Position numbers and translations under genes: made by a program. A stretch of DNA of 44,326 bases. It comes from an uncultured Brachyspira sp. (GTDB lineage Bacteria > Spirochaetota > Brachyspiria > Brachyspirales > Brachyspiraceae). Positions within the stretch are counted from its first letter, which is position 1. Every line of letters begins with the position of its first letter. The DNA is taken from contig NZ_CALXRM010000024.1 of NCBI RefSeq assembly GCF_944390845.1, positions 1 to 44,326 of the forward strand. Reading direction: 5' to 3'. Under the pieces are notes generated by a model. That model was given only the letters and a program-made list of their open reading frames with translations. It ran no database searches and was not told where the DNA came from. Shown here in pieces: positions 29,382 through 40,042 of this stretch.

Positions 29382-29810
29382 AACGCACGGTGGACAAAAT
29401 TTTATTATTAAACTAATCATCAATACAAATTTATTAAATAATAAAATGCATTAACCGTGCGTTAATTTAAATTCTAAATTTAAACAGCACTTGGGTGGGC
29501 GTTAACATTTCTAATTAAGCAATAAAGATAATGCAAATAAAAATTTCAAAAATACACCATAGAGAATAAAGGGCGGGATTTCTAAATAAGTTTTTAAATT
29601 TTATTTTAGCTGCCCACCCTCTTTCTTTAATACTCAAATACAACTTTTTTATTTTATTTTTCCTAAATATTTTAAACAGATTTTTTAACACCCACCCAAG
29701 ATATGTTTAAATTTGTTATCTGCATACCGCACGAATAACTTAATTAAAATATATAAGTAAATATAAATACAATTTTAATTATATTTAGAATTTCTTTCAC
29801 CGTGCGTTAA
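29382..29810. repeat. Eight-motif nested palindromic element, copy A
   Basis: The region between 28204-29361 and trmB holds eight short GC-rich motifs in AT-rich DNA: AACGCACGGT 29382, ACCGTGCGTT 29454, CTTGGGTGGGCGTTAA 29490, AGGGCGGG 29570, CTGCCCACCCT 29610, TTAACACCCACCCAAG 29685, ACCGCACG 29726 and ACCGTGCGTTAA 29799. Motifs 1/8, 2/7, 3/6 and 4/5 are inverted complements placed symmetrically about the centre near 29596. Copy B has the same motifs at the same spacing to within 4 bp, while the spacers do not match. I see no open frame or tRNA in it. Confidence 0.88.
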
Positions 29811-29882
29811 AAAATATCTATGATGTATTGACATAAATACTAAGTAATATATCATTCAAACAAAATACTAGGAGAATAAATA

Positions 29883-36980: not shown

Positions 36981-37408
36981 AACGCACGGTAAAATCGCCA
37001 AATAATATAATTTCAATTCATTTTATTTACACTACCCTATTTTACAAACTTCATTAAACGTGCGGTAAATACATACCAAACCTAAAACCAATTTGGGTGG
37101 GGGTTAAATTTTTCTATTTATACAATAAAGAAATAAAAACTACAATTCACAAATTAAAATAAAAAAGATATAGGGTGGGTTTTAAAATAAACTTTAAAGA
37201 ATTACTTAGACTGCCCGCCCTTTATCCTTATGCTCGATTTAATCATTTATTGTTATTATCTTTAAAGCCAATAACAAAAAAGCATGCCCCACCCAAGTGG
37301 AGATTAGATTTTTTAATTTAAACACCGCACGGTTTATCTGTTTTGATATATAGAAAAATTTGAACTCTAAATTAATTTATATTTTTTATTTTATTTACCG
37401 TGCGTTAA
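36981..37408. repeat. Eight-motif nested palindromic element, copy B
   Basis: Motifs in order are AACGCACGGT 36981, AACGTGCGGT 37057, TTTGGGTGGGGGTTAA 37092, AGGGTGGG 37172, CTGCCCGCCCT 37211, a CCCCACCCAAG block ending 37297, ACCGCACGGT 37324 and ACCGTGCGTTAA 37397. Offsets from the first motif are 0, 76, 111, 191, 230, 301, 343, 416, against 0, 72, 108, 188, 228, 303, 344, 417 in copy A. The inner spacers are AT-rich and unlike copy A. The last motif contains the stop codon of the TPR gene on the minus strand. Confidence 0.88.
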
Positions 37409-39825
37409 TTAAAACTTATATTGTTTCTATTACAAAACTCTACAGCAGTTTTTATATTCTCTTTTGCAAGTGAAATAACACATTTTAATATAAGCTTCTT
37501 ATCTTCTTTATTTGCAAACTTATAAGCTTTTTCAAAATTTTTATAAGCCTGTTCATTTAACTTATCAAAAATATTATTCATCTTGTCAAACTGTATATCA
37601 ATATAAGCTAAACTATTATGAGCTAATGCATGTTTATTATTTAGTTCTATACACTTATTGAAATAAGATAAAGCTTCATTATAATATTTAATTGCTTTTT
37701 CTTTATCATTAGTAAATAAATATATATTAGCTAACTTTGTAACAGTATACCCAATACTGTCATATACTGAAGCAGTTGTTAAACTATCATCTATATTTAA
37801 TTCCAAACCTTTATTATAATAAATTAAAGCATCAGATATTAATTCTATAGCCTTAGAAATATTTCCTTTTCTAAACTCATTATTAGACTGTTTTGTCTTA
37901 GAAAATCCAATACCATTATAAGCAGTTAAATAATTAGGATCTATTTCTAACGCTTTTTTATAATCTTCCAAAGCTTCATCATAAAGGTGAATACCAACTT
38001 TACTCAAACCTCTATTATAATATGCCTCAATAGATGAAGGCTCCTTTTCAATAACTTTATCATAATATTTAATAGATTCTTCAAGATTATTCAATGAATC
38101 ATAACATATAGCTATATTAAAATAAGCATCAACACTATCATTATCAAGCTCTATTACTTTATTAAAATCTTCTATAGCTTCATTATATAAATCAAGCTCC
38201 ATTTCTGATAATGCCCTGTTATAATAAGATTCTACATGCTGATTATCAATATCTATAACTTTAGTATAATATTTAACAGCCTTTTCATAATCTTCTATTG
38301 CCTCATAACATAAAGCAGAATTATAATAAGCATATATATTTTCATCATCAATTTCTATTACTTTATTAAAATCTCTAAGAGCCAAATCATAATCATTTAT
38401 TCTATAATAAGTAAGACCTCTTTCATTGTAAGCATTAATGTAATACTCATCTAATTCTATTGCTTTAGAGAAATACTCAATAGCTTCATCATATTCATTC
38501 AAGTAGAAATTAGTAAGACCTCTGAAATAATAAAACTCACTGTCGCAGTTATGCAATTCTATAGCCTTATCAAAATCTTCTAAAGCCTCTCTATATAATT
38601 GCATTTTCCCTTTAAGCAAGGCTCTGTTATTGTATAAATAAGCATCATTTTTTTCTAACTCTATAGCTTTGTTATAATCATCTAATGCCTCATCATACAT
38701 TTTAAGCTCATTCTTTATAAGCCCTCTATTATTATATGAATAAACATCATTCGGATTTAATTCTATAGTTTTACTATAATCTTTGATAGCATCTTCATAC
38801 AAATCCAATGCTTCTTCAGCTAATGCTCTATTATAGTAGGCATAAAATATATTTTCATCTATTTCTATTATATTTGTATAATATTTTATTGAATCTTTAT
38901 AATTTCCTAGCTTGTATTCAAGAAGCCCCATATCATTATAAATATTTACTGTGTTTTCAGTACCTAATTCTAAAGCCTTCTTATAATCATTCATAGCTTC
39001 CTGATACAATTCCAAATTATTTTTTGCAAGCCCTCTAAAATAGTATGCATTTGAAAAAGTAGAGTCTAATTTTATGGAAGTATCAAAATCTTTTACAGCT
39101 TCTTCATATAAGCCTAAATAAAACTCGCTTAACCCTTTAGAATAATATGCCTCATTATCATCTTCTCTAAGCTCTATAAGTTTATTGAAATCAGATAAAG
39201 CTTCCTCATACATTTTTAAATAACACTTTGAATGTCCTCTATAATAATATATATCATCAATTTCTGCTTCCCCAGATTTTTCCAACAAAGATAAAGACAA
39301 GTCAAAATGCTTTATAGCTTCCTCATAGTTTGATAAATAAAAATATCCAAGTCCAACATAATACATTGCCTCATAATCATCTTCATTAAACTCTAATACC
39401 TTTTTAAAATCTTCGATACCTTCCTCATATCTTCTCAAATAGGATTTTGAATGTCCTCTATTGTAATATGCATCTGATTTGTCTGGAGATAATTCAATAA
39501 CTTTATCAAAATCTTTTATGGCTTCTTCATAATTTCTCATATTATATTTTGATATAGCTCTATTATAGTAAGCATCTACTAAAGTATTATGAGTGCTGTT
39601 TATATCCTCATCATTAACATTTATTCCTTCTTCCTCATCTTCATTATCATACGATGAATCGCTATATATAATAAATTCACTGTCAGAGTATGCTATAATA
39701 TCTTTATTGTAAATATTTATAATTTCATCTAAATACTCAATAGCCTTTTCATAATCTTTATTTACAAAAGCCTCATGTCCTAAATCAAATAATCTTTCAA
39801 TATTCTTTTTATCATCATTATTCAT
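37405..39825 (-). CDS. Giant tetratricopeptide-repeat protein
   Basis: The protein of about 806 residues is built from about 20 TPR units of 34 residues. Most keep the consensus AYYNRG-x-K-x2-L-x2-YEEAIKDFDKAIEL, for example around NDVYSYNNRGLIKNELKMYDEA. The first unit (residues near 5-40) is separated from the rest by an acidic insert (DSEFIIYSDSSYDNEDEEEG). No signal peptide is seen, so it is probably a cytoplasmic protein-interaction scaffold. I prefer the ATG at 39825, after GAGAGA, but an ATG ten codons upstream (39855) is possible. The stop codon lies inside the last motif of palindromic element B. Confidence 0.85.
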   Translation of the reverse strand: MNNDDKKNIERLFDLGHEAFVNKDYEKAIEYLDEIINIYNKDIIAYSDSEFIIYSDSSYDNEDEEEGINVNDEDINSTHNTLVDAYYNRAISKYNMRNYEEAIKDFDKVIELSPDKSDAYYNRGHSKSYLRRYEEGIEDFKKVLEFNEDDYEAMYYVGLGYFYLSNYEEAIKHFDLSLSLLEKSGEAEIDDIYYYRGHSKCYLKMYEEALSDFNKLIELREDDNEAYYSKGLSEFYLGLYEEAVKDFDTSIKLDSTFSNAYYFRGLAKNNLELYQEAMNDYKKALELGTENTVNIYNDMGLLEYKLGNYKDSIKYYTNIIEIDENIFYAYYNRALAEEALDLYEDAIKDYSKTIELNPNDVYSYNNRGLIKNELKMYDEALDDYNKAIELEKNDAYLYNNRALLKGKMQLYREALEDFDKAIELHNCDSEFYYFRGLTNFYLNEYDEAIEYFSKAIELDEYYINAYNERGLTYYRINDYDLALRDFNKVIEIDDENIYAYYNSALCYEAIEDYEKAVKYYTKVIDIDNQHVESYYNRALSEMELDLYNEAIEDFNKVIELDNDSVDAYFNIAICYDSLNNLEESIKYYDKVIEKEPSSIEAYYNRGLSKVGIHLYDEALEDYKKALEIDPNYLTAYNGIGFSKTKQSNNEFRKGNISKAIELISDALIYYNKGLELNIDDSLTTASVYDSIGYTVTKLANIYLFTNDKEKAIKYYNEALSYFNKCIELNNKHALAHNSLAYIDIQFDKMNNIFDKLNEQAYKNFEKAYKFANKEDKKLILKCVISLAKENIKTAVEFCNRNNISFN

Positions 39826-40042
39826 ATTATAGTCTCTCATAAAATTATTAATCATTTTTTATTATATATAAAAATTACAATAATTACTATATGTAAGATA
39901 AATTTTGTAATTAAAGAACAAAAAAAATTACTTTAATTAATAATTTAGATAGTTATTACTATATATAATAGTTAGTATTATTCATTGAAGTTTTTGTATT
40001 TTCACTTTATATATTAAAAATATAATTTAATTTGTCTAAATT

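What the first reader, a model, noticed from the sequence alone, without database searches (positions are those of the whole stretch)
29382..29810. Element A: eight GC-rich motifs in a position-exact nested palindrome
Seen: eight motifs of 8-16 bp in AT-rich DNA. Motifs 1/8, 2/7, 3/6 and 4/5 are inverted complements, and motif 6 sits exactly at the mirror position of motif 3 (offset 303 from either end). The spacers between them are not complementary and are not shared with copy B. Conservation of short motifs and distances with free spacers suggests an array of protein sites with fixed geometry, a structured transcript, or a non-autonomous mobile element recognised by motif. I know of no described bacterial element with this plan. 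The function is unknown.
Basis: seen in the sequence. Interest (0 to 1): 0.9.

Follow-up and report, generated by a model that had tools for sequence, protein, structure and literature searches.

The report
Origin-clustered fixed-spacing DNA sites in Brachyspira
Brachyspira spirochetes carry up to about 150 copies of a DNA element built from short GC-rich motifs at fixed distances; the motifs are almost immune to mutation and the copies crowd around the chromosome's centromere (parS) and inferred replication origin, which suggests a previously undescribed set of docking sites that organise or segregate that part of the chromosome.

Summary
Element A is one copy of a genus-wide family: 145 arms in this genome, 12-123 in 22 other Brachyspira genomes, none in three deep-branching ones or in other genera. 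The unit is not a true palindrome. It is a ~343-bp, tandemly extendable module of two distinguishable inverted arms (alpha: CCGTGCGTT / CTTGGGCGGG / AAAGGGCGGG; beta: nCGTGCGGT / TTGGGTGGG / AAAGGGTGGG). Spacing varies by only 1-2 bp.

Between two sister species the motif G/C positions changed 0.7%, against 25.8% in the spacers (p ~ 6e-48). Indels inside the element are 1-4 bp, against up to 35 bp in the flanks. Spacers show no hairpin covariation.

Loci are stable between species while unit number changes in ~340-bp steps. Copies lie between genes, often convergent ones, and are strongly concentrated around parS, which marks the origin (mean position 26-72 kb from parS in the three well-sampled complete genomes; Rayleigh p down to 3.5e-13).

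Best reading: arrays of protein-binding sites in the origin domain, working like, but unrelated to, Noc or matS sites. Function and binding protein are inferred. RAYT/REPIN and a Noc paralogue were tested and are absent. A structured RNA and an active mobile element are disfavoured.

The parts
29382..29810 (+). Element A: one unit plus the shared H-H pair; alpha arm on the + strand (left), beta arm on the - strand (right)
   Evidence: sequence; blastn and nhmmer family; K centres C (left) and T-type (right), rule
29384..29389 (-). motif 1, H core CGCACG
   Evidence: unchanged in the aligned orthologues
29454..29463 (+). motif 2, H ACCGTGCGTT (alpha type)
29490..29499 (+). motif 3, G CTTGGGTGGG
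29568..29577 (+). motif 4, K AAAGGGCGGG (centre C = alpha type)
29613..29622 (-). motif 5, K CCCACCCTCT (centre T on its G strand = beta type)
29691..29700 (-). motif 6, G CCCACCCAAG
29726..29733 (-). motif 7, H ACCGCACG (rc CGTGCGGT, beta type)
29799..29810 (+). motif 8, H ACCGTGCGTTAA
36981..37408 (-). Element B: same plan in the opposite direction (beta arm left: GGGTGGG; alpha arm right: CCCGCCC), between two convergent genes
   Evidence: (inverted match 29563-29608 / 37183-37228)
36983..36988 (-). element B, H core CGCACG
37059..37064 (+). element B, H core CGTGCG, followed by G (beta type)
37093..37101 (+). element B, G TTGGGTGGG
37172..37179 (+). element B, K AGGGTGGG (beta type)
37214..37220 (-). 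element B, K CCCGCCC (alpha type)
37288..37296 (-). element B, G CCCACCCAA
37326..37331 (-). element B, H core CGCACG
37397..37408 (+). element B, H ACCGTGCGTTAA
29828..29855 (+). conserved promoter-like block between element A and trmB (TTGACA-16-TATCAT); neighbour, not part of the element
   Evidence: 96% identical among orthologues; missing in the three species with the empty site

Best explanation
Shown: the element belongs to a Brachyspira-specific family of intergenic cis-acting DNA arrays. Each array is made of alternating inverted arms (H-36-G-77-K, alpha and beta types), joined head to head across K-K (~50 bp) and H-H (~68 bp). Arrays grow and shrink by whole ~343-bp units. Motifs and spacings are held by purifying selection, and copies are concentrated around the parS cluster. 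Inferred: one or more sequence-specific proteins bind the CGTGCG and GGGNGGG sites and assemble a defined nucleoprotein complex on each arm. Many such complexes scattered over about +-0.5 Mb mark the origin domain, and serve its compaction, segregation or membrane tethering, or shield it from division, as Noc sites and (at the terminus) matS sites do in other bacteria. The binding protein is unknown.
For: Family and geometry. Purifying selection: between G004 and G006, motif positions changed in 0.5% (741 sites) against 11.1% in spacers; G/C sites 0.7% against 25.8% (Fisher p 6e-48). Spacing: 64 of 65 intervals unchanged to within 2 bp; indels average 1.2 bp inside against 5.2 bp in the flanks, p 5e-6. 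Origin centring: mean arm position within 72, 32 and 26 kb of parS in three complete genomes, Rayleigh p 3.5e-13, 3.9e-8, 3.9e-5; 71-79% of loci lie in the third of the chromosome around parS; graded fall-off in G004. dnaA is not at the origin in this genus (PMC3163572, PMC3532143), and the GC3 skew turns over in the same region. Not explained by gene spacing: intergenic gaps are equally dense near and far. Convergent gaps are enriched (37% against 14%), and no motif pair lies inside an ORF over 150 aa. A degenerate H-H module sits between the two parS sites in five species. No hairpin covariation.
Against: No binding protein is identified and no functional data exist. Three deep lineages with parS and/or ParB live without the element, so the function is not universal even in the genus. 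Copy number ranges from ~12 to 145 arms per genome. Isolated copies lie far from parS, two arms near dnaA among them. Orientation relative to the origin is only weakly biased (40 of 64 in G004). In G010 and G011 only six strict arms each were placed, and G011 is not significant.
Confidence: 0.55

Rival explanations
1. A non-autonomous, REPIN/MITE-like repeat that once spread by a transposase, with a preference for origin-proximal (early replicated, high dosage) DNA, and is now largely immobile.
For: Dispersed, intergenic, multi-copy; a clear empty site in three lineages (29, 35 and 94 bp against about 450-750 bp); tandem and half copies; one G004 copy (1690450) is missing at the G006 site.
Against: No Y1/RAYT transposase in any of 26 genomes. 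36 of 38 comparable loci are occupied in both sister species. The locus of element A is shared by more than a dozen species. Motifs are under purifying selection at individual fixed loci, which dead mobile copies would not be. No fixed end: arrays stop at H or at the K-K centre. Absent from phage and plasmid collections; the one viral-contig match is a chance hit in GC-rich DNA.
Confidence: 0.2
2. Binding sites of a transcriptional regulator or bidirectional insulator acting on neighbouring genes, with the origin bias secondary.
For: Fixed-spacing protein sites are typical of regulators; element A lies next to a conserved promoter-like block upstream of trmB.
Against: Enriched between convergent genes and depleted between divergent ones, the reverse of promoter regulators. 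Neighbouring genes of A and B are unrelated (trmB, FMN-binding, TPR protein).
Confidence: 0.15
3. A structured RNA or DNA cruciform: the nested palindrome works as a long hairpin.
For: Element A folds better than shuffles on both strands (z -7.9 and -7.1).
Against: Left and right halves are not more complementary within a copy than between copies, oriented or not, with or without G-U. K centres are opposite in type (C against T) in 33/34 and 33/40 units, so the helix nearly always carries C-A or U-G. No Rfam match.
Confidence: 0.05
4. Recombination sites or hot spots that drive the origin-symmetric inversions and the unit-number changes seen in Brachyspira.
For: Unit number changes in ~340-bp steps between sister species; one species kept exactly one H-H pair at the element A locus; symmetric X-pattern rearrangements are published for the genus (PMC3163572, PMC3532143).
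Against: Recombination between repeats follows from repetition alone and does not explain selection on motifs and spacing.
Confidence: 0.05

Closest known systems
Noc binding sites (NBS) of Bacillus subtilis and Staphylococcus aureus
   Same: Tens of dispersed sites concentrated in the origin-proximal part and absent around the terminus (about 70 sites; 41 loci, all but one within 700 kb of the origin: PMC4726725, PMC5540599).
   Different: NBS are single 14-bp palindromes read by a ParB paralogue; here multi-motif 343-bp directional arrays, and each Brachyspira genome holds only one full ParB.
matS/MatP (Ter) and maoS/MaoP (Ori) macrodomain systems of E. coli
   Same: A cis site family that marks a macrodomain of hundreds of kb (23 matS in 800 kb: PMC3330122; maoS: PMC5023128).
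   Different: matS is 13 bp and terminal; maoS is a single 17-bp site; neither forms tandem fixed-spacing arrays.
BIME/REP and REPIN elements
   Same: High-copy intergenic mosaics with motifs in alternating orientation, vertically inherited.
   Different: REP units are 20-40 bp hairpins copied by RAYT; here the motifs are not hairpins, units are ~343 bp, and no RAYT is present.
parS/ParB centromere
   Same: The family is centred on parS, and an H-H plus GGG-run module lies between the parS pair in five species.
   Different: The element's motifs do not resemble parS; the module is missing at parS in G000, G010, G011, G014 and G001.

Membership tests
Noc/NBS nucleoid-occlusion system | Dispersed sites enriched around the origin, depleted at the terminus | tested here: met
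Noc/NBS nucleoid-occlusion system | A Noc protein (second ParB-family protein) | tested here: not met
   one full-length ParB-family match in each of 26 Brachyspira genomes; second matches in three genomes fall below the family cut-off
Noc/NBS nucleoid-occlusion system | Inhibits division over the nucleoid | not testable with these tools
   needs genetics and microscopy
MatP/matS | Sites confined to the terminus | tested here: not met
   sites centre on parS
REPIN/RAYT | RAYT (Y1) transposase in the genome | tested here: not met
   PF01797: 0 of 26 genomes (family rings in 5 controls)
REPIN/RAYT | Inverted halves able to form a hairpin, kept by covariation | tested here: not met
   within-copy complementarity not above between-copy
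Structured non-coding RNA | Compensatory base-pair changes or match to an Rfam family | tested here: not met
MITE | Terminal inverted repeats of fixed sequence with target-site duplication | tested here: inconclusive
   ends vary between H and K centres; empty site found but too diverged to read a target duplication
Promoter regulator site | Enriched upstream of genes | tested here: not met
   divergent gaps depleted, convergent enriched, p 2.7e-7

The most novel reading that the evidence does not exclude
A new chromosome-organising system: a two-type (alpha/beta), directional, tandemly extendable nucleoprotein array that defines the origin macrodomain of Brachyspira around parS, read by an unknown DNA-binding complex with no relation to Noc, MatP, MaoP or SMC loaders.
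Probability: 0.4. Interest if true: 0.93.

Novelty: new variant of a known kind. Interest (0 to 1): 0.85.

Why it matters
Few cis-site systems that organise an origin domain are known, and I know of none from spirochetes. This one announces itself by sequence alone: about 100 arms per genome, nearly frozen motifs, fixed distances, centred on parS in several species. If the reading is right, a single pull-down would give the protein. The genus offers natural element-free species as controls, and the origin, which published work moved away from dnaA on skew alone, gets an independent marker.

Tried and rejected
Rfam search: nothing. My first guess, a terminus cluster, was dropped when dnaA proved unlinked to the origin and parS marked the same region. 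Simple dif-like and DnaA-box searches gave no terminus or oriC marker. The loose pattern in viral contigs gave chance hits only; the three-motif pattern gave one hit, in GC-rich DNA. Plasmid and phage collections: no match. A second ParB (Noc) and RAYT as partners: rejected. Orientation towards the origin: weak, inconclusive. Helical phasing: H-H and K-K centre distances are near whole turns, but G-K is not and some K-K are 5-6 bp longer, so no claim. The first hairpin test mixed orientations and was repeated with oriented units, with the same result. Literature: no description of the family found in the held library.

Full report
What is there. A blastn search of the window's own genome (G000, 3.43 Mb, 133 contigs) gave 85 matches. 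Hits occur in 25 of 26 genomes of the genus and in none of the other genera of the order. A strict two-motif pattern counts arms: 145 in G000, 123 in G022, 112 in G009, 104 in G006, 100 in G004, down to 12; zero in G001, G003, G019 and all outgroups. The reversed pattern gives 0, with one single match in one genome. In a scan of 257 billion bases of bacterial and archaeal genomes with a three-motif pattern, all 80 listed rows are Brachyspira; the list was cut, so rarer outside hits cannot be excluded.

Anatomy. The repeat is modular. Reading along one strand the order is always H- H+ G+ K+ K- G- H- H+, with H = CGTGCG, G = TTGGGNGGG, K = AGGGNGGG. Modal spacings (as measured) are H-/H+ 67-68, H+/G+ 36, G+/K+ 77-78 and K+/K- 49-50. 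The reversed neighbour orders that were counted (H+/H-, G+/G-, K-/K+) are not seen within 110 bp. Units repeat in tandem with a period of about 343 bp, sharing the H-H pair, and arrays end at H or at the K-K centre. The two arms of a unit are different: K centres are C on one side and T on the other in 33 of 34 units of G000 and 33 of 40 of G004 (binomial p 4e-9 and 4e-5). Arms fall into two consensus classes, alpha and beta, with different spacers, the beta arm being A-rich. The element therefore has a direction. A points with alpha on the + strand, B with alpha on the - strand.

Selection. For 25 loci of similar length between the sister species G004 and G006 (flanks about 94% identical), motif positions changed in 0.5% and spacers in 11.1%. 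At G and C positions, which mutate fastest here, it is 0.7% against 25.8%, while the free centre base N changes like a spacer (p 6e-48). Motifs were found in G004 but not required in G006, so this is not circular for the second species. Indels inside are 1-4 bp, flank indels run up to 35 bp, and 64 of 65 motif intervals keep their length to within 2 bp. Homogenisation between copies would have levelled the spacers as well. So sequence and spacing are both constrained at individual loci.

Locus history. At the element A locus (outer-membrane-like gene to trmB) more than a dozen species carry the element. G001, G003 and G019 have 35, 29 and 94 bp instead. G001 and G003 branch first in a midpoint-rooted trmB tree (G019 was not in the tree). 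G011 keeps exactly one H-H pair, as expected from recombination between neighbouring units; G021 keeps a left half; G007 and G002 have foreign DNA at the K-K centre. Between G004 and G006, of 38 comparable loci, 19 are the same, 17 differ in motif content, often by one or two ~340-bp units, and 2 score as absent, one of which is only motif drift.

Where on the chromosome. In G004 the arms pile up between 1.19 and 2.09 Mb of 3.19 Mb. dnaA is at 2.96 Mb, but published work finds dnaA unlinked to the origin in this genus (PMC3163572, PMC3532143). The parS 16-mer TGTTTCAYRTGAAACA occurs at one place per genome, in G004 at 1.676 Mb. The residual third-position GC skew turns over broadly in the same region, with the sharp opposite switch at about 0.05 Mb. 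The mean arm position lies 72, 32 and 26 kb from parS in G004, G009 and G007; the median distance is 272-278 kb against about 800 expected; Rayleigh p is 3.5e-13, 3.9e-8 and 3.9e-5. G010 agrees on six arms; G011 with six arms is not significant. Density falls from 12.6 arms per 100 kb within 250 kb of parS to about 3 beyond 530 kb, and to zero in most windows near the opposite pole (some far windows were chosen because they hold arms, so the far figure is an overestimate). Intergenic gaps are equally dense near and far, so gap supply is not the cause. In five species a degenerate H-H plus GGG-run module sits between the two parS sites themselves; it is missing in G000, G010, G011, G014 and G001. 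The orthologous element A locus lies about 133 kb (G004), 54 kb (G009) and 130 kb (G007) from parS.

Genes around. Elements sit in gaps between convergent genes more often (37% against 14%) and between divergent genes less often (17% against 27%) than other gaps, p 2.7e-7, and never inside an ORF over 150 aa. This speaks against promoter regulation.

RNA or cruciform. Element A folds well, but palindromic protein sites do that too. Across copies the two halves are no more complementary within a copy than between copies, oriented or not, with or without G-U. The slight deficit within copies suggests that perfect palindromes are avoided (inference).

Mechanism. Shown: a conserved array of short DNA sites with fixed distances, in intergenic DNA, concentrated around parS. 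Inferred: sequence-specific proteins occupy CGTGCG and GGGNGGG and build a complex of fixed geometry, and many complexes label the origin domain for organisation, segregation, tethering or protection from division. This works like the Noc site system (PMC4726725, PMC5540599) and like matS at the other pole (PMC3330122). It is not a member of either: no second ParB, wrong pole, different site anatomy. REPINs fail on RAYT and on hairpins (PMC8049555). The main rival is an old selfish repeat with origin-biased insertion; selection at fixed loci argues against it as the whole story, though a repeat later adopted by the host would fit all data.

Limits. No protein, no expression data, no experiment. 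Origin position rests on parS and skew. G004 was sampled (about 1.2 Mb read in full, arms counted genome-wide). Chromosome positions come from five complete genomes, not from the window's draft genome.

Noticed in passing
window 49, 5126, 5442 (+), 44179 (-): A promoter-like block TTTGACAAARTATAGTTGTTTAGGTATA is repeated four times in the window, next to GGGGCAAAGCCCC-like hairpins; not found in 127 kb of other G000 stretches or 1.2 Mb of G004.
   Followed up: partly
window 5332 (+), 44318 (-): CCGAGCCTGTCGAGGATAT occurs twice in inverted orientation, about 39 kb apart, the second copy at the contig edge.
   Followed up: no
window 29828-29855: A promoter-like TTGACA-16-TATCAT block upstream of trmB is 96% conserved in element-bearing species and missing in species with the empty site, where trmB directly follows the outer-membrane-like gene.
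   Followed up: partly
L113 16260-16473 and L400, L401, L405, L407: An H-H pair plus runs of GGG (e.g. GGGGCGGGCGGG) lies between the two parS sites in G004, G005, G006, G007 and G009 but not in G000, G010, G011, G014, G001.
   Followed up: partly
G004 1550815, 1578233, 1646166: Lone G-K arms without H motifs occur as single intergenic copies that are kept in the sister species.
   Followed up: no
G004 844955 and 2956816: parB (0.845 Mb) and dnaA (2.957 Mb) both lie far from the parS cluster (1.676 Mb), an unusual separation.
   Followed up: partly
L133 (G007) and L134 (G002): At the element A locus these species carry extra DNA (about 114 and 225 bp) at the K-K centre, as if this were a preferred insertion point.
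   Followed up: no
window 4306, 4386, 42766: TGGCAGRCT-headed short repeats; 11 more matches in 1.2 Mb of G004.
   Followed up: no
window 37405-39855 (-): An 816-aa protein made of tetratricopeptide repeats with a 102-bp DNA period, next to element B.
   Followed up: no
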